Virus record (IMG/VR): IMGVR_UViG_3300044816_000098
Span: 1-64,000 of that record
Source of the DNA: a virus
Length of the DNA: 64,000 nt
Strand: one strand, 5' to 3'
Part shown: in pieces, positions 12,462-58,914 of the stretch
How positions within the stretch are numbered: the first letter of the stretch is position 1
How the letters are laid out: each line of letters begins with the position of its first letter
Made by a program: the position numbers and the translations under genes
The notes under the pieces: model-generated
What the model was told of the DNA's origin: nothing
The model's database searches: none
The model's input: the letters and a program-made list of their open reading frames with translations, nothing else

Positions 12462-15400
12462 ATGCAGATCATCGAGACGTATCCGCACGACCGTCTGGCC
12501 ATTGAGATCATGGGCCGGACCTACCCCGGTGTGTGCCTTGTCGAGGACGACGACGGTATCCGCTGGCTCCTTGTCGCCTGGGGCGCGGTCCACGGACCGA
12601 CCTGGGCCCGCGCCGCAGGATCCGGGGCAGCAGGCATCCTGCACACCGCAGGCGACCTGCCGATTCGTGCGATCACCGCAGAGCGCTTCGCCGACCAGCG
12701 CACGGAGCAACAGCCCTACTACGTCGTACCGGACGGGGCCTGGTCCCAGTTCGACCACATGCCCTCCTACGCCGAGGTCTACAGCAGCCGTCCTGGCTCT
12801 CTGCTGGTGGCCAGGGGACCGGTCAACTCCGGCTTCGTCCACCTGCACACCCACAGCGACTACTCGCCACTGGACGGGCTGAGCACCCTCCCGGAGATCG
12901 TCACCCAGGCCGCGCTGCACGGGCAGGAGTCCCTGGCGCTGACCGATCACGGCCGCTGTGCTGGACATCCGCTCCTCCAGAAGGAGTGCCAGGCAGCCGG
13001 GATCCGGCCGGGCTTCGGGATCGAGGCGTACTTCGTCAACGACCGGCTGATCCGGCCGGACGGCATGACGGTCCCCGAGGGCGCCGTGGACACCAAGGGC
13101 AAGCCCTTGACGGCGGCCAAGAAGCTCCAGCACGACTACTGGCACCTGATCCTGTGGGCCATGAACGAAGAGGGGCTGCACAACCTCTGGGCCATGTCGA
13201 CGGAGTCCTTCCGCGACGGGCTCTACTACAAGCCCCGGATGGACTGGGACACCCTGCGCAGGCACTCCAGCGGGGTCATGGCGGCCTCCGGCTGTCTGCG
13301 GGGCCCGTTGAGCGTGCCGATCCTCAACGACGACGAGGACGGCGCCCGCAGGAACCTGACCAAGCTCCTGGACATCTTCGGCGACCGGTTCTACCTGGAG
13401 ATCCAGCCCAACGCGCTGGCGGAGCAGGAGAAGGTGAACCGCGCCCTGGTGCGGCTGGCCAAGGACTACAGCGTCCCCCTGCTGGCCACGGTCGACTCGC
13501 ACTACCCGGTGAAGAAGGACCACGACGCCCACGAGGCGTGGATCGCGATCCAGACCAACAAGGACGTCAGCGATGAGGGCGACCTGTTCGCGATCAACCT
13601 GGACCTGTACATGCAATCCGAGGAGGAGGTCCGCAAGGGCCTCGCGTACCTCGGGGACAGCGTGGTGGATGAGGCCGTCGCCAACACGGTCGTAGTGGCC
13701 TCTCACTTCAACGCGATCATCGGCGGCAAACCGACGGCGCCGGTGTACTCGAAGAAGGGTGGCCCGCAGCGGGACGAAGAGCGCCTGCTGGAGCTGTGCA
13801 TCGAGAACTGGAACAAGGTCTCCGGCAAGAGGGACGACCAGGACACCTACGTCGCCCGCTTCGAGCGGGAGTTCTCCCTGCTTCGCCAGAAGGGCTTCTG
13901 CGGCTACTTCCTGATGGTCTCGGACTACTGCCGCTTCGCGAAGGACAACGGGATCCTGGTGGGCCCTGGGCGCGGTTCCGGGGCAGGTTCCCTGGTGGCC
14001 TACCTCAGCGACATCACCGAGGTCGACCCGATCGAGGCGAACCTCCCCTTCGAGCGGTTCATGACCGAGGGGCGCGTCTCGCTGCCGGACTTCGATGTGG
14101 ACTTCCCGGCCTCCAAGAAGGAGGTGATGCTCCAGTACCTGCGGGACAAGTACGGGGAGCAGTACGTCATCTCCATCGGCACCCACCTGCGGCTCAAGTC
14201 CAAGGGCATCGTCAAGGACCTTGGCCGGGCGCTGAAGTCCAAGCTCCTGGAAGACGTCCCGATGGAGGATCAGAACGACCGGTACGCGACGATCCTCAAG
14301 GACCTCAACGTGGTCTCGAAGATCGTCGAGGACGCGGAGCGGGGCACGGCCGGGCTCGGGATGTCCTGGGAGGACCTGTGGATCCAGCACGGTGACGAAC
14401 TGGATCCCTACCGGGCGAAGTACCCGTATCTGTTCTCCATGGCCGACCGGCTCGTGGGTCGGATGAAGGCGTACGGCAAGCACGCGGCCGGGGTCGTCAT
14501 CTCCACTGACCGGGCCCTGACGGACTGGCTCCCGCTCTCCGGCGGTGAGGGAGAGCAGATGGTCTCCCAGTTCGACATGGGTGCGCTGGAGGACATGGGG
14601 CTGGTGAAGTTCGACATCCTCACCATCCGGACCCTGGACACCGTGCAGCAGGCGGTGGACCTGATCCGGGAGCGCAACGGCTCCGACGTCGAGATTTATA
14701 AATGGCGGGACGAGTACGAGGACCCGCTCGTGTGGGAGAGGATCGCGGCGGGGGAGACCCTGGGGATCTTCCAGATCGAGACCCAGGCCGGTACCCGGCT
14801 GTGCCATCGGATGCAGCCGCACTCGATGCAGGAACTCTCGGACATGAACACCATCGTCCGGCCGGGCCCCATGCGTTCGGGCCTGACCGAGACCTACCTC
14901 AAGCGCCGGGCCGGGCTGGAGTCGATCTCCTTCCAGGACCCGCGCCTGGAGGCCATCACCGGCGACGCCCAGGGCTGCATCATCTACCAGGACCACGTCC
15001 TGGAGCTGCTGATGAAGCTCGCGGGCTACACCTCGGACGAGGCCGACGAGGTCAGGAAGATCCTCGGCAAGAAGAAGGTCGAAAAGATCGGCCCGGCCGG
15101 GCAGGAGTTCGTGGCCCGTGCTGTCGAGTGGGGCGGGATGGACCGCGAGGTCGCCTCCCACCTGTGGGACCAACTTGCGGAGTTCGCGAAGTACGGGTTC
15201 AACAAGGCCCACGCGTACAGCTACTCCATGATCAGCTACTGGACCGCGTGGCTGAAGTTCCACTACCCGGTGGAGTTCTTCACGGCCTGTCTGAGCACCA
15301 TCGACCAGAACCGCATTCCGGAGTTCATCAAGGAGGCCCGGCGGACCGGGCTCACTGTGCTGCCCCCGGACGTCAACGCCTCCGGCAAGGGCTTCAAGGC

Positions 15401-16298
15401 CGAACCGCTGGCGGTTCGCTACGGGCTGGACGCGATCAGCGGGATCGGTGAGGTGGCGGTCGAGGATCTGGAGGCCGGGCAGTTCTACACCTCCTGGACC
15501 CAGTTCAACGAGTACGCCACCCGGCCTGGCAGCAAGATCAACGCCGGGATCGTGATGCTCCTCGCCAAGGTGGGAGCGTTGGACTCCCTGGAACCCAACA
15601 GGGCGGGCCTGGTGGCCCGTCTGGAGGCCAAGAAGTCCGGGGAGGACACCCGGTGCGTCTTCAAGGACGACAGGGCCCTCCACAGCCCCGTGGTGATTCG
15701 CCATCCGGACGAGTCCGCAGAGGACCACCAGGTCCGGTACGACGCGGAGCGCAAGAAGCTCCCTCCGGACACCTGCACCTTCGACTGGAGCACCGAGGAA
15801 CCCCCGGTCAACCCGAGGACCTTGAAGCTCCTCCCCCTGAAGGCCCTGCCGAAGCGCTGCACCAAGGCGTGCCGCCAGTACAAGGCGCCGGACCTGATGG
15901 ACATCGCCGAGGTCGCCCCGTACACGGATGAAGAGGTCCGTGCGATCGAGCACGAGCTTCTGGGAGTGTTCCTCTCCTCCACGCCGTTCGACCGGCTGGA
16001 CGTGGTGGACCGCTCCTCGCTCTACCACGATGCCGAGGACCTGGTCACGGGGCCGCCGAAGCTGTACACGATGGCCGCCATCCTGATGGGGATCCGCAAG
16101 ACCAAGACCCGCGCCACCGGGGACGAGATGGCCTTCGTGTCGCTGGACACCGAGCTGAACACGGTGGAGGCCGTGGTCTTCCCCAAGCAGTGGGCCGCGA
16201 TCCAGACCGGGATGAAGGCCGGACAGCTCTGCCTGGTCGTGGTGGAGAAGCAGGCGGATGACAAGGGACTCGTCCTGCGCGAGTACGTGACTGTGTAG
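12462..16298 (+). CDS. dnaE: DNA polymerase III alpha subunit (DnaE, family C)
   Basis: The 1278-residue protein has a PHP domain from about residue 127 (HLHTHSDYSPLDG, LALTDHGRC), the C-family palm with GPGRGSGAGSLVAYL and the catalytic LPDFDVDFP (Asp 543 and 545), HAAGVVIS, a fingers region (FQIETQAGTRL, TIVRPGPMRSG), the FNKAHAYSYSMISYWTAWLK segment and a C-terminal OB-like fold (YTMAAILMG, FVSLDTELNTVEAVVFP). About 125 N-terminal residues precede the PHP domain and have no counterpart in bacterial DnaE. It is the replicative polymerase of the phage; no separate clamp or clamp-loader gene is visible in this window. ATG 12462 follows GGGAGGAGGACTCCT. Confidence 0.96.
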   Translation: MQIIETYPHDRLAIEIMGRTYPGVCLVEDDDGIRWLLVAWGAVHGPTWARAAGSGAAGILHTAGDLPIRAITAERFADQRTEQQPYYVVPDGAWSQFDHMPSYAEVYSSRPGSLLVARGPVNSGFVHLHTHSDYSPLDGLSTLPEIVTQAALHGQESLALTDHGRCAGHPLLQKECQAAGIRPGFGIEAYFVNDRLIRPDGMTVPEGAVDTKGKPLTAAKKLQHDYWHLILWAMNEEGLHNLWAMSTESFRDGLYYKPRMDWDTLRRHSSGVMAASGCLRGPLSVPILNDDEDGARRNLTKLLDIFGDRFYLEIQPNALAEQEKVNRALVRLAKDYSVPLLATVDSHYPVKKDHDAHEAWIAIQTNKDVSDEGDLFAINLDLYMQSEEEVRKGLAYLGDSVVDEAVANTVVVASHFNAIIGGKPTAPVYSKKGGPQRDEERLLELCIENWNKVSGKRDDQDTYVARFEREFSLLRQKGFCGYFLMVSDYCRFAKDNGILVGPGRGSGAGSLVAYLSDITEVDPIEANLPFERFMTEGRVSLPDFDVDFPASKKEVMLQYLRDKYGEQYVISIGTHLRLKSKGIVKDLGRALKSKLLEDVPMEDQNDRYATILKDLNVVSKIVEDAERGTAGLGMSWEDLWIQHGDELDPYRAKYPYLFSMADRLVGRMKAYGKHAAGVVISTDRALTDWLPLSGGEGEQMVSQFDMGALEDMGLVKFDILTIRTLDTVQQAVDLIRERNGSDVEIYKWRDEYEDPLVWERIAAGETLGIFQIETQAGTRLCHRMQPHSMQELSDMNTIVRPGPMRSGLTETYLKRRAGLESISFQDPRLEAITGDAQGCIIYQDHVLELLMKLAGYTSDEADEVRKILGKKKVEKIGPAGQEFVARAVEWGGMDREVASHLWDQLAEFAKYGFNKAHAYSYSMISYWTAWLKFHYPVEFFTACLSTIDQNRIPEFIKEARRTGLTVLPPDVNASGKGFKAEPLAVRYGLDAISGIGEVAVEDLEAGQFYTSWTQFNEYATRPGSKINAGIVMLLAKVGALDSLEPNRAGLVARLEAKKSGEDTRCVFKDDRALHSPVVIRHPDESAEDHQVRYDAERKKLPPDTCTFDWSTEEPPVNPRTLKLLPLKALPKRCTKACRQYKAPDLMDIAEVAPYTDEEVRAIEHELLGVFLSSTPFDRLDVVDRSSLYHDAEDLVTGPPKLYTMAAILMGIRKTKTRATGDEMAFVSLDTELNTVEAVVFPKQWAAIQTGMKAGQLCLVVVEKQADDKGLVLREYVTV

Positions 16299-56195: not shown

Positions 56196-56224
56196 TTGTA
56201 CTCCAGGAATTCCCGTAGTAGCGT
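56196..56224 (+). promoter_or_regulatory. Palindrome promoter: TTGTAC-N17-TAGCGT
   Basis: Half-sites are CTCCAGGAAT and TCCCGTAG. The leader has TGCCAGAGAAACACC and GACTCCAAGGAGG before ATG 56264. Confidence 0.85.
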
Positions 56225-56263: not shown

Positions 56264-56848
56264 ATGGGTAATCAGCTCAAGGTCCAGCTCACCCTCACCG
56301 GCACCGCACCGATCCTCATGCACAACGCGCGGCTGGCGGACCCGCTGGACAGCTACACCAAAATGCTCAAGGTGGTGTCATCCAAGCGGACCAAGACCGA
56401 CGACGACCACGAGGAGATGGCCCGCGTCGAGTTCCTTGGGGGCCTGTACTGCGACGACGTCATGGGTCCGTACATCCCGGGCGTCAACCTCCACCAGTGC
56501 CTGATCGAGGGAGCCAAGCTCACCCGGCGCGGTCGGCACGTGGAGCGCGGCGTGGTGGTCATGGAGGAACAGCTCCTCCTCGCATACAGCGGCCCCCGCA
56601 CGCCGGACGAGCTGTACGCGGACAAAAACTTCCGCTCGCGGCTCTCGGTGGGTGTCACCACCTCCCGCGTCATGCGGACCCGCCCGAAGTTCTCCTCGTG
56701 GGCCCTGGAGGCCAACCTCGTCGTGGACACCGGGCAGCTCGACCTCAACGACATCAACGAGATCAGCGAGACGGCCGGGATGATGATCGGCCTGGGCGAC
56801 TACCGCCCGCGCTACGGCCGGTTCGATGTCGTGGTGACGGAACTCTGA
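56264..56848 (+). CDS. Conserved phage protein, possibly RAMP-like
   Basis: The 194-residue protein reads LKVQLTLTGTAPILMHNARLADPLD, then KRTKTDDDHEEMARVEFLGGLY, GPYIPGVNLHQCLIEGAKL and ends GLGDYRPRYGRFDVVV. The N-terminal beta strand, the central GPxIP and the terminal glycine-rich GxxRPRYGRF strand resemble the ferredoxin-like RAMP fold of Cas7/Csm3 proteins, in which a G-rich loop is conserved. No other cas gene is present. It may be an unrelated phage family with similar topology. Confidence 0.75.
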   Translation: MGNQLKVQLTLTGTAPILMHNARLADPLDSYTKMLKVVSSKRTKTDDDHEEMARVEFLGGLYCDDVMGPYIPGVNLHQCLIEGAKLTRRGRHVERGVVVMEEQLLLAYSGPRTPDELYADKNFRSRLSVGVTTSRVMRTRPKFSSWALEANLVVDTGQLDLNDINEISETAGMMIGLGDYRPRYGRFDVVVTEL

Positions 56849-56855
56849 CGTTCAG

Positions 56856-56939
56856 GGCAAGGCATGGCAAGGCTCGGTAGAGCTGGGCCAGGCTGGTCAA
56901 GGCAGGGTTCCCCATCAGGGCTTCACGGCGCTAGTGGGG
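56856..56939 (+). repeat. GGNNN pentamer array module 1 with hairpin
   Basis: Eleven pentamers lie in strict 5-nt register from 56856 to 56910; nine begin GG and the last is GGTTC. The hairpin arms are 56910-56921 and 56928-56939 (two mismatches) with loop TTCACG, the same loop as module 7. Confidence 0.88.
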
Positions 56940-56947
56940 GCGTTCAA

Positions 56948-57026
56948 GGCGGGGCGTGGCAAGGCACGGTACGGCACGGCGGGGCAAGGCAGGGTTCCCC
57001 TTCAGGATTTAAAAGTCCTGGAGGGG
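56948..57026 (+). repeat. GGNNN pentamer array module 2 with hairpin
   Basis: Ten pentamers, all starting GG, occupy 56948-56997 in perfect register and end GGCAG-GGTTC. The hairpin arms are 56997-57007 and 57016-57026. The loop and its flanks form the GATTTAAAAGTC element. Confidence 0.9.
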
Positions 57027-57034
57027 GCGCTCTG

Positions 57035-57123
57035 GGCGAGGCTTGACGGGGCTGGGTATGGCCAGGTCTGGCGGGGAAAGGCAAGGCAGGGTTCCCCTCC
57101 TCAGGATCACACCTGAGGAGGGG
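57035..57123 (+). repeat. GGNNN pentamer array module 3 with hairpin
   Basis: Twelve pentamers span 57035-57094 in register, eleven starting GG. The hairpin is a perfect 12-bp stem (57094-57105 with 57112-57123) with loop ATCACA, the same loop as module 6. Confidence 0.9.
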
Positions 57124-57130
57124 GCTTTGA

Positions 57131-57224
57131 GGCGGGGCATGGGCAGGACCAGGCGGGGCGCGGTGTGGCCGTGTAGGGCACGGCGTGGCAGGGTTCTTCT
57201 CCCTCTGGGTCAGACCAGGGGAGA
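57131..57224 (+). repeat. GGNNN pentamer array module 4 with hairpin
   Basis: Four pentamers (57131-57150), a single extra A, then nine more (57152-57196) ending GGTTC. The hairpin arms are 57198-57208 and 57215-57224 with one bulged base and loop GTCAGA. Confidence 0.85.
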
Positions 57225-57234
57225 GGGCAATCAA

Positions 57235-57279
57235 GGCGCGGCACGGCGCGGTTAGGCAAGGCAAGGCATGGCAGGGATC
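57235..57279 (+). repeat. GGNNN pentamer array module 5, no hairpin
   Basis: Nine pentamers, all starting GG, end with GGATC instead of GGTTC. No stem-loop follows; the array runs straight into the GACTCACAGGAGG ribosome-binding region of the gene at 57303. Confidence 0.88.
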
Positions 57280-57302
57280 ACCACCGACTCACAGGAGGAA
57301 CG

Positions 57303-57881
57303 ATGAAGAAGTTCGAGGCCGAGGACCAACAGCCTCGGTGGGCACGGGTCTACAACGGCATCCGCGCCCTGAAGACCGGTGAGGCGGCCACCTATCACCA
57401 GCTCAGCGAGTGGGCAGGGGTGGATGTCACCGGGACCAACAGGGCCTGCGTCTACGAGGCGATCCGGTTCTTGCAGCGCAAGGACCACCGGACGCTCGCC
57501 TGTATCCCCACGGTGGGCTACATGGTGGTTCCGGCCAGTGCTCACGAGGATCTCGCCAAGAAGCACAACAAGAAGGCGGGTCGTCAGCTCCGCGAGGCCA
57601 TCGGCAAGGTCCAGTCGGCTGACCGGAACTACCTGACCCCGGCCGAGGCCCGGCGGATGGATTCCATGGAGGTGGACCTCTCCCGGCAGAGGCACATGAT
57701 CATCGGCCTGAGTCGGCGACTCGACAGGACCGAGACCGCCATCAAGGAGGCCCGCCAGCGCGACCGCGAGGCCAAGGGCACCATCGCTCAGCTCTCCGAG
57801 GAGAAGGACGCTCTGGCCACCGAGGTGCGCGAGCGCCTGGCGCGCCTGGAGCAGGTCCTCCTGGACCGCACGGCGGCCTGA
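57303..57881 (+). CDS. Winged-helix/coiled-coil DNA-binding protein within pentamer arrays
   Basis: The 192-residue product has an N-terminal winged-helix-like domain (about residues 14-75: RVYNGIRALKTGEAATYHQLSEWAG, NRACVYEAIRFLQRKDHRTLACIPTVGYMVV, with the wing in the last part), then a basic stretch and a long coiled coil from about residue 115 (MEVDLSRQRHMIIGLSRRL, EAKGTIAQLSEEKDALATEVRERLARLEQ). A HTH domain plus dimerising coiled coil, encoded inside an array of short repeats, suggests it binds them, for example as an origin or partition protein or an autoregulator. That link is inference. Confidence 0.85.
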   Translation: MKKFEAEDQQPRWARVYNGIRALKTGEAATYHQLSEWAGVDVTGTNRACVYEAIRFLQRKDHRTLACIPTVGYMVVPASAHEDLAKKHNKKAGRQLREAIGKVQSADRNYLTPAEARRMDSMEVDLSRQRHMIIGLSRRLDRTETAIKEARQRDREAKGTIAQLSEEKDALATEVRERLARLEQVLLDRTAA

Positions 57882-57896
57882 TCCCCAGACTTCTTG

Positions 57897-57980
57897 GGCA
57901 CGGCTCGGCTCGGTAGGGCCAGGCGTGGCACGGCAAGGCGCGGCAGGGTTCCCGCCCTGGGGATCACACCTCAGGGCGGG
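57897..57980 (+). repeat. GGNNN pentamer array module 6 with hairpin
   Basis: Eleven pentamers, all starting GG, run in perfect register from 57897 to 57951 and end GGCAG-GGTTC. The hairpin 57951-57962 with 57969-57980 has one mismatch and loop ATCACA. Confidence 0.9.
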
Positions 57981-57989
57981 GCGTTCCGT

Positions 57990-58083
57990 GGCAAGGCAAC
58001 GCAAGGCGGGCCGGGGCGCGGTGGGGCAAGGTACGGCTTGGCATGGCGAGGTTCCCCACCAGCACTTCACGGTGCTGGTGGGG
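57990..58083 (+). repeat. GGNNN pentamer array module 7 with hairpin
   Basis: Thirteen pentamers in register from 57990 to 58054, eleven starting GG, ending GGTTC. The hairpin is a perfect 12-bp stem (58054-58065 with 58072-58083) with loop TTCACG. Confidence 0.9.
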
Positions 58084-58091
58084 GCGTTCAG

Positions 58092-58136
58092 GGTTAGGCA
58101 GGGCTGGGCTGGACAAGGTAAGGCAGGACATGGGAG
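58092..58136 (+). repeat. GGNNN pentamer array module 8
   Basis: Nine pentamers, seven starting GG, run 58092-58136 and lead in register into the GAGACCCCGC stem of the terminator, which takes the place of the usual hairpin. Confidence 0.82.
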
Positions 58137-58172
58137 GAGACCCCGCAGGTCAGATGACTTGCGGGGTCTCTT
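58137..58172 (+). terminator. Rho-independent terminator closing the array
   Basis: GAGACCCCGC (58137-58146) pairs perfectly with GCGGGGTCTC (58161-58170); a further GTCA/TGAC pairing lies in the loop, and TTC follows. Confidence 0.8.
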
Positions 58173-58184
58173 CATGCAGCGGGG

Positions 58185-58213
58185 TTGTACTCCTGCAATC
58201 CTTGTAGTAGCTT
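58185..58213 (+). promoter_or_regulatory. Palindrome promoter: TTGTAC-N17-TAGCTT
   Basis: A clean hybrid: left half CTCCTGCAAT as in 31018 and right half CCTTGTAG as in 63746. Leader GACTCCCCTGGAGG precedes ATG 58255. Confidence 0.87.
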
Positions 58214-58254
58214 TCTCTTATCACCATGAACCACTGACTCCCCTGGAGGGTCAT

Positions 58255-58914
58255 ATGCAGGACGAGAACCCCATCGAGGCGGAGCAGCGCAGGCGCCAGG
58301 AGGCCCTGGACCAGGCGTGTGCTGACCGGTACCTCGCCATGCTGGAGGTCGAGCACGGGGACACCTTCCGGGAGGCCGTCAAAGAGGGTGAGGAGTACGA
58401 GCGCCGGAAGGAGGAGCTTCGCGCCCACATCCTGAAGACGTACGACGTGGGCGATTTCAACCAGGAGAACCTGCATGGTGATCCGCCTGCGCTCACTCCG
58501 GAACAGGCCGAGAAGCTCCAGAAGGCGGCCAAGCGGGTGGCGGATACAGCCCGCAAGCACCTGTATGAGCAGACGCTCTCTCCGGAGGAAATCCGGGAGG
58601 ACTTCGTTCCCCGCATCGGTGGCTGGACGCCCGGCAGGCACAAGCCGGAGACCCACGAGGGCCTGCTCTTCGAGCTGGAGGCGGAGCGGGCCATGTTCCT
58701 CGGCAAGGGCGCGCCCAAGGATCCGGACCCCGACCTCCAGGCCCTGCACCAGGAGCTGCATCAGCTCCACGTGACCTACCAGCGCACGGGGGACCGCTCC
58801 CTGTTGCTCCCGATCGCAGACCTGACCGCGCGGTACAACGCGCTGATCAAGCCGAAGCCCCGGATGGACAAGCCGAAGAACCCCAACCCCTTCCCCCGCT
58901 TCACCGTCGACTAG
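58255..58914 (+). CDS. Hypothetical charged helical protein (219 aa)
   Basis: The product is helical and highly charged: EAEQRRRQEALDQACADRYLAML, KEGEEYERRKEELRAHILKTYD, TPEQAEKLQKAAKRVADTARKHL and ELHQLHVTYQRTGDRSLLLPIADLTARYNAL. It ends Pro/Lys-rich. No cysteine cluster or membrane segment is present. No family was recognised. Confidence 0.78.
   Translation: MQDENPIEAEQRRRQEALDQACADRYLAMLEVEHGDTFREAVKEGEEYERRKEELRAHILKTYDVGDFNQENLHGDPPALTPEQAEKLQKAAKRVADTARKHLYEQTLSPEEIREDFVPRIGGWTPGRHKPETHEGLLFELEAERAMFLGKGAPKDPDPDLQALHQELHQLHVTYQRTGDRSLLLPIADLTARYNALIKPKPRMDKPKNPNPFPRFTVD

What the first reader, a model, noticed from the sequence alone, without database searches (positions are those of the whole stretch)
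56856..58170. Eight modules of strict 5-nt-period GGNNN arrays, most with a stem-loop, flanking a DNA-binding protein gene
Seen directly: arrays at 56856-56910, 56948-56997, 57035-57094, 57131-57196, 57235-57279, 57897-57951, 57990-58054 and 58092-58136 contain 9-13 pentamers each. They keep perfect 5-nt register with one single-base slip at 57151. Most pentamers begin GG (commonly GGC), six arrays end GGTTC, and the stem-loop starts on the last C. The inner three bases vary freely, so only GG spacing is conserved. Known parall: TRAP protein binds about 11 NAG triplets spaced by 2 nt (also period 5) next to a terminator hairpin. G2N3G2N3G2N3G2 is also a two-tetrad G-quadruplex motif. Inference: this is a ring- or polymer-binding RNA/DNA element, a G4 array, or an origin/partition locus.
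Basis: partly seen in the sequence, partly recalled or inferred. Interest (0 to 1): 0.93.

Follow-up and report, generated by a model that had tools for sequence, protein, structure and literature searches.

The report
Phage VIPR guide-RNA locus
The odd five-base-rhythm DNA is a set of eight guide-RNA genes of a VIPR system, a recently described CRISPR-like weapon that phages appear to use against other phages; this is a new example in a large phage that probably infects actinobacteria, with extra guide-RNA genes elsewhere in its genome.

Summary
Eight GG-period-5 arrays lie on the + strand at 56856-58136 and nowhere else in the window. The units are GGY/NN: positions 1-3 are fixed, positions 4-5 are near-random.

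The arrays belong to a VIPR system (bioRxiv 2026, PMC13142463). It is phrog_4652. AlphaFold gives pLDDT 96.6, and all 50 PDB matches listed are CRISPR RAMP-type proteins, nearly all type III or VII backbone subunits. It is 35% identical to the gene I take as the prototype SUSP1 Vipr. Of 120 IMG/VR loci fetched by the (GGNNN)x10 DNA pattern alone, 82 encode a Vipr homologue. In those, 294 of 296 arrays share its strand and 286 lie within 1 kb.

Each module is a vrRNA: a guide tract plus a 12-bp hairpin tail that covaries between modules. Likely function, by homology: Vipr coats the vrRNA, the NN pairs read DNA with one base skipped, and the target gene is silenced. I found no significant target.

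Extras: a second four-tract array and a solo tract elsewhere in the genome without a vipr gene, and tRNA-minihelix-like tails in related actinophages. New member of a known kind.

The parts
56196..56224 (+). putative promoter of the operon: TTGTAC-N17-TAGCGT, one of 13 copies of a shared element in the window
   Evidence: pattern search: 13 matches against 0.27 expected; alignment by eye shows TTGTAC, 17 nt often holding an inverted repeat, then TAGAGT-like; promoter role is inferred
56264..56848 (+). vipr gene: 194-aa RAMP protein (phrog_4652)
   Evidence: PHROG E 1.8e-57; AlphaFold2 pLDDT 96.6; PDB fold matches are Csm3/Cas7-type RAMPs, best E 4e-6; 35% identity to the SUSP1 protein
56854..56939 (+). 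vrRNA 1: GGY/NN tract to 56910, hairpin tail 56910-56939
   Evidence: tail identical to one in the second array
56946..57026 (+). vrRNA 2: tract to 56997, hairpin 56997-57026
57033..57123 (+). vrRNA 3: tract to 57094, hairpin 57094-57123
57129..57228 (+). vrRNA 4: tract to 57196 with a +1 slip at 57141-57143, hairpin from 57196
57233..57279 (+). vrRNA 5: tract without its own hairpin, running into the leader of the vap gene
57303..57881 (+). vap gene: 192-aa winged-helix plus long coiled-coil protein
   Evidence: profile search finds the gene next to vipr in Felix-type, Pseudomonas, Mycobacterium and Gordonia phages and IMG/VR loci; AlphaFold2 pLDDT 94.2, HTH-wing-coil; weak PDB matches to winged-helix regulators
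57895..57980 (+). vrRNA 6: tract to 57951, hairpin 57951-57980
57988..58083 (+). vrRNA 7: tract to 58054, hairpin 58054-58083
58090..58173 (+). vrRNA 8: tract to about 58133, ending in a strong hairpin 58134-58173, probably the operon terminator
   Evidence: arms 19 nt, 89% complementary; folding z-score -6.1; the strict terminator scan did not call it

Best explanation
This is a VIPR locus closest to type II: promoter (56196), vipr (56264-56848), vrRNAs 1-5, vap (57303-57881), vrRNAs 6-8 and a terminator-like hairpin (58134-58173), all on one strand. SHOWN here: the GGY/NN code, the covarying hairpin tails, the RAMP fold of the upstream protein, its homology to the protein I identify as SUSP1 Vipr, the vap homologue, and tight linkage of such arrays to this protein family across many viral contigs. 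INFERRED from the preprint's experiments on SUSP1: the transcript yields about 80-100-nt vrRNAs, each bound by several Vipr subunits. The GGY bases are held by the protein and the NN bases pair with double-stranded DNA, skipping one target base between dinucleotides, so the complex sits on and silences genes of competing phages, prophages or satellites. The Vap probably helps it hold DNA.
For: Array statistics and GGY/NN composition. Upstream protein is phrog_4652, folds with pLDDT 96.6, and the 50 PDB matches listed are CRISPR RAMP-type proteins. 35% identity over 186 aa to SUSP1 ALH47069.1, whose flanks show one GGY/NN array upstream and three downstream, the layout the preprint reports for SUSP1 vrRNAs. 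Vap homologues sit beside vipr in the same phages and the model is winged-helix plus coiled coil. 82 of 120 loci found by DNA pattern alone encode Vipr; 294/296 tracts on the same strand, 286/296 within 1 kb. Tails covary: 93.8% of cells paired, 8 of 12 pairs with double changes, slid controls at most 67%. Same arrangement in annotated phages LittleE, MakoManhole, prophiBWHA-1, Medea1, LESphi2, wV8 and VSe11.
Against: No significant target was found under the 1-nt-skip rule: own genome, 1.27 Mb of related loci, four IMG/VR scans of vrRNAs 1, 3, 6 and one from the second array, one 85,000-species genome scan, and 299 genomes of the family of the best candidate's genome, where hits (5) were about equal to the reversed-pattern control (3). 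Expression, Vipr binding and silencing are not shown for this locus. vrRNA 5 lacks a hairpin tail.
Confidence: 0.95

Rival explanations
1. The arrays are a protein-binding sponge or autoregulatory RNA: the RAMP protein coats its own transcript to control expression or stability, with no DNA targeting.
For: No target was found for the vrRNAs tested; arrays sit in the same operon as the binder.
Against: The two NN bases are close to random while GGY is fixed, which fits a guide better than a plain binding site. SUSP1 and P. fulva relatives silence DNA by the NN code in the preprint (PMC13142463). The genome also carries array copies far from the vipr gene.
Confidence: 0.04
2. The arrays form G-quadruplexes or act as a DNA element such as a replication origin or partition site.
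For: G2N3 repeats can in principle form two-tetrad quadruplexes (general knowledge).
Against: Conserved pyrimidine at position 3, RNA-style covarying hairpins, near-perfect strand and position linkage to a RAMP gene, and the same spacing kept as GGTNN in Felix-type phage genomes of about 39% GC (GC content from the Felix O1 abstract). GC skew shows nothing special here.
Confidence: 0.005
3. A TRAP-like regulatory RNA: a ring protein binds the evenly spaced repeats next to a terminator hairpin.
For: Period 5 and a hairpin after each tract resemble TRAP targets (reader; general knowledge).
Against: TRAP needs NAG triplets; here the fixed triplet is GGY. No TRAP homologue was seen; the linked proteins are a RAMP and a winged-helix protein.
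Confidence: 0.005

Closest known systems
VIPR system of Escherichia phage SUSP1 (type II; PMC13142463, locus in KT454805)
   Same: Single RAMP gene plus small DNA-binding-type vap, flanked by same-strand GGY/NN arrays, each with a structured 3' tail; Vipr 35% identical
   Different: The phage seems to infect actinobacteria (nearest polymerase relatives are mycobacteriophages). It has eight vrRNAs here plus four tracts and one solo tract elsewhere, against four in SUSP1. Tails are simple 12-bp hairpins rather than the reported pseudoknot. Vap is longer, with an extended coiled coil. Several vrRNAs lie between vipr and vap.
Type III and VII CRISPR backbone proteins (Csm3/Cas7)
   Same: RAMP fold; subunits coat a guide RNA at a fixed step (6 nt in CRISPR, general knowledge and preprint)
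   Different: One small protein, no CRISPR repeats or other cas genes seen in the tested neighbourhood; 5-nt repeat built into the guide itself
TRAP and its RNA targets
   Same: Repeats every 5 nt next to a hairpin
   Different: NAG rather than GGY; no TRAP protein
Mycobacterium phage LittleE and Gordonia phage MakoManhole loci (unannotated VIPRs)
   Same: Homologous vipr and vap and the same array code
   Different: Tails look like tRNA acceptor/T-arm minihelices

Membership tests
VIPR | single-domain RAMP protein of the Vipr family | tested here: met
VIPR | vrRNAs of about 9-16 tandem YNNGG units with fixed GGY and free NN | tested here: met
   eight tracts of 9-13 units; composition
VIPR | variable tract followed by a conserved structured 3' tail | tested here: met
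   7 of 8 tracts end in a hairpin; covariation
VIPR | vap gene next to vipr (DNA-binding type in types II, VI, VII) | tested here: met
   homologues beside vipr in many phages; winged-helix model
VIPR | encoded mainly by phages or prophages | tested here: met
   154-kb virus record; phage polymerase
VIPR | vrRNAs transcribed and bound by Vipr | not testable with these tools
   needs RNA sequencing and pull-down
VIPR | NN dinucleotides match competing mobile elements by the 1-nt-skip rule | tested here: inconclusive
   no significant match for the guides scanned
CRISPR-Cas type III | CRISPR repeats and Cas10 or other cas genes alongside the RAMP | tested here: not met
   no CRISPR-type repeats in 56500-58700; none of five neighbouring proteins matches a Cas family
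TRAP target RNA | NAG triplets every 5 nt | tested here: not met
   fixed triplet is GGY

The most novel reading that the evidence does not exclude
The phage keeps guide-RNA arrays away from its VIPR operon: four tracts at 151051-151382 and a solo tract at 111497-111557, both on the minus strand with no vipr nearby. They would act in trans with the single Vipr, and modules seem to be copied between arrays with their tail intact while the guide bases change. In actinophage relatives the tails would be tRNA-minihelix mimics cut by the host's RNase P or RNase Z, a route of guide maturation that the preprint's main text does not mention.
Probability: 0.35. Interest if true: 0.65.

Novelty: new member of a known kind. 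Interest (0 to 1): 0.5.

Why it matters
VIPR is a very recent, preprint-only system proposed as an ancestor of CRISPR, with a new way of reading DNA by gapped base pairing. This locus extends it to a large phage that probably infects actinobacteria, with at least 13 guide tracts in three places, and gives independent sequence-only support for the GGY/NN code and its link to the Vipr family. It also shows a simple search key: a ten-unit (GGNNN) DNA pattern alone recovers mostly VIPR loci, so unannotated examples in known phages (LittleE, MakoManhole, Trine, LESphi2, Felix-type phages) can be listed at once.

Tried and rejected
G-quadruplex, origin and TRAP readings (see rivals). Coding repeat: tracts slip frame, carry hairpins and keep a 5-nt period, so no protein explains them. 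Rfam at gathering threshold on the window and at E up to 1 on four related loci gave nothing; ARAGORN found no tRNAs in the window and none at the tRNA-like tails. Nucleotide search in INPHARED found only weak Gordonia phage matches, over the vipr gene. Searching viral contigs with the vap protein alone found nothing; with vipr alone, one locus. Target hunting: the best candidate, an integrase-like gene in Actinacidiphila oryziradicis (L230, 19 of 20 bases over ten NN, skip at the wobble base), is what chance gives in that much sequence and has no support in 299 genomes of its family. A LESphi2 guide used as a positive control gave four loci; the two best are the same DNA in an unrelated AT-rich phage, so I could not reproduce the skip rule here.

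Full report
WHAT IS THERE. The eight arrays are real and local: a fixed-period scan found them at period 5 on the + strand only, and shuffled sequence does not reproduce them. Reading them as pentamers gives GGY/NN. Over 88 units, G is at position 1 in 85, G at position 2 in 80, C or T at position 3 in 83, and positions 4-5 carry 1.75 and 1.94 bits. Seven tracts run into a hairpin. The six internal hairpins plus two from a second array in the same genome share a 12-bp, 6-nt-loop shape while their sequences differ: 93.8% of cells pair, 8 of 12 pairs show changes on both sides, and slid controls reach at most 66.7%. These counts rest on only eight sequences.

THE LINKED GENE. The more informative gene is the one just upstream (56264-56848), a member of phrog_4652 with no known function in that library and no Pfam match. 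Relatives occur in 130 INPHARED records, mostly Felix-type phages of Escherichia and Salmonella, plus Gordonia, Mycobacterium and Pseudomonas phages. In MakoManhole, LittleE, prophiBWHA-1, Medea1, LESphi2, wV8 and VSe11, GGNNN tracts flank the gene; Trine has one inside an annotated gene next door. In the Felix-type phages, whose DNA is far less GC-rich, the units are mostly GGTNN, so the GG spacing is not a by-product of GC content.

THE ASSOCIATION. Iterated profile search of all ORFs found a homologue of the 56264 protein in most of these loci; counted on L005-L124, 82 of 120 have one, 294 of 296 tracts lie on its strand, 286 within 1 kb, 220 downstream and 74 upstream. Some loci without a hit are short contigs or end-of-contig simple repeats; others may hold a more distant relative, which I did not chase.

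WHAT THE PROTEIN IS. AlphaFold2 on the window protein with 66 relatives gave mean pLDDT 96.6. Foldseek against the PDB returned 78 matches at E up to 0.001; all 50 listed are CRISPR RAMP-type proteins, nearly all Csm3/Cas7 backbone chains of type III and VII complexes, best E 4.1e-6, TM-scores mostly about 0.45-0.55, so a shared fold rather than close kinship. Invariant residues cluster in R140, W146 and a glycine-rich C-terminal loop (G176, R181, P182, G185, F187; some nearly rather than fully invariant), in line with a RAMP glycine loop.

WHAT IT IS CALLED. A literature search turned up the answer: PMC13142463, a 2026 preprint describing VIPR systems, a Vipr RAMP plus vrRNAs of alternating GGY/NN motifs that recognise double-stranded DNA with one base skipped between dinucleotides. 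I compared this window with the preprint's prototype phage. In phage SUSP1 (KT454805) I identify vipr as ALH47069.1, by homology and position. It is 35% identical to the window protein over 186 aa, and its flanks show one array upstream and three downstream, as the preprint says. The window's 57303 protein belongs to the family that sits beside vipr in the relatives; its direct match to the SUSP1 neighbour is weak (E 4e-4), but the profile links them through Felix-type phages. Its model is an N-terminal winged helix followed by a long coiled coil, with weak matches to winged-helix regulators. By vap family this looks like type II, though I had no access to the preprint's classification data.

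HOW IT LIKELY WORKS. By homology, one transcript from a promoter-like element at 56196 (one of 13 copies in the window) covers vipr, five vrRNAs, vap, three more vrRNAs and a terminator-like hairpin. Vipr subunits coat each tract; the NN bases read the target. The preprint shows silencing and phage inhibition for SUSP1-type systems; nothing of that has been shown for this phage.

TARGETS. I tested the 1-nt-skip rule. Nothing stands out in the phage's own genome, so there is no sign of self-targeting, nor in 1.27 Mb around other VIPR loci, where skip lengths 0-3 perform alike. Exact 18-base patterns from vrRNA 6 and from one tract of the second array have no match in IMG/VR. Sixteen-base cores of vrRNAs 1 and 3 gave 42 and 3 hits, and of vrRNA 6 in 85,000 species genomes 54 hits; extension to full length is at chance level. 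The best, an integrase-like gene in Actinacidiphila oryziradicis, was not supported by 299 genomes of its family (5 hits against 3 for the reversed control). Exact-match scans are strict, only some guides were scanned, and environmental phages are thinly sampled, so this is a lack of evidence rather than evidence against targeting. A control with a LESphi2 guide also failed to give a convincing target.

WHAT MAY BE NEW. The same genome holds a second array (151051-151382, minus strand, four tracts) and a solo tract (111497-111557, minus), yet only one Vipr and one Vap. One tail in the second array is identical to the first tail in the window, which suggests module copying with change of guide. 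In LittleE, MakoManhole, Trine, prophiBWHA-1 and IMG/VR locus L042 the tails look like a tRNA acceptor stem plus T-arm with an invariant GTTCGANTC loop, although ARAGORN and Rfam do not call them; not every one of them folds that way as its minimum-energy structure. The preprint's main text does not contain the word tRNA; its supplement was not available to me, so I cannot say these points are unreported.

VERDICT. New member of a known, very recently described kind; high confidence in identity, no direct evidence on its targets.

Noticed in passing
G000:C1:151051-151382 (-), outside the window: Second vrRNA array of four tracts with no vipr or vap beside it; one hairpin tail is identical to the tail at window 56906-56945.
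   Followed up: partly
G000:C1:111497-111557 (-), outside the window: A lone GGY/NN tract followed by a hairpin, apparently a solo vrRNA.
   Followed up: partly
L134 (LittleE), L132 (MakoManhole), L133:4640-4780 (Trine), L135 (prophiBWHA-1), L042: vrRNA tails resemble tRNA acceptor/T-arm minihelices with an invariant GTTCGANTC loop; possible RNase P or Z processing signals.
   Followed up: partly
window 31018, 32662, 34868, 43044, 44833, 49130, 50003, 53351, 54065, 54450, 56196, 58185, 62442 (+): Thirteen copies (0.27 expected) of an intergenic element TTGTAC-N17-TAGAGT-like, often with the palindrome CTCCTGC-AATC-GCAGGAG between the boxes: probably promoters with a shared operator. One lies just upstream of vipr.
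   Followed up: partly
L133:4640-4695: In phage Trine a vrRNA-like tract and tRNA-like tail lie inside the annotated gene 40, so that gene's start is probably misannotated.
   Followed up: no
L138 (phage wV8) 3750-3807 and 5143-5200: GenBank 'DR_4' repeats of Felix-type phages lie in the intergenic regions that hold the vrRNA tracts beside vipr and vap, and probably mark repeated parts of the vrRNAs.
   Followed up: partly
IMG/VR loci such as L005, L006, L023, L029, L048, L067: GGNNN arrays with diverse NN bases but no detectable Vipr homologue in the stretch held: distant Viprs, contig ends or orphan vrRNAs.
   Followed up: no
window 12462-16298 (+): DnaE-like DNA polymerase about 30% identical to those of large mycobacteriophages such as Tonenili and HyRo, hinting at a distant actinobacterial myovirus-type phage.
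   Followed up: partly
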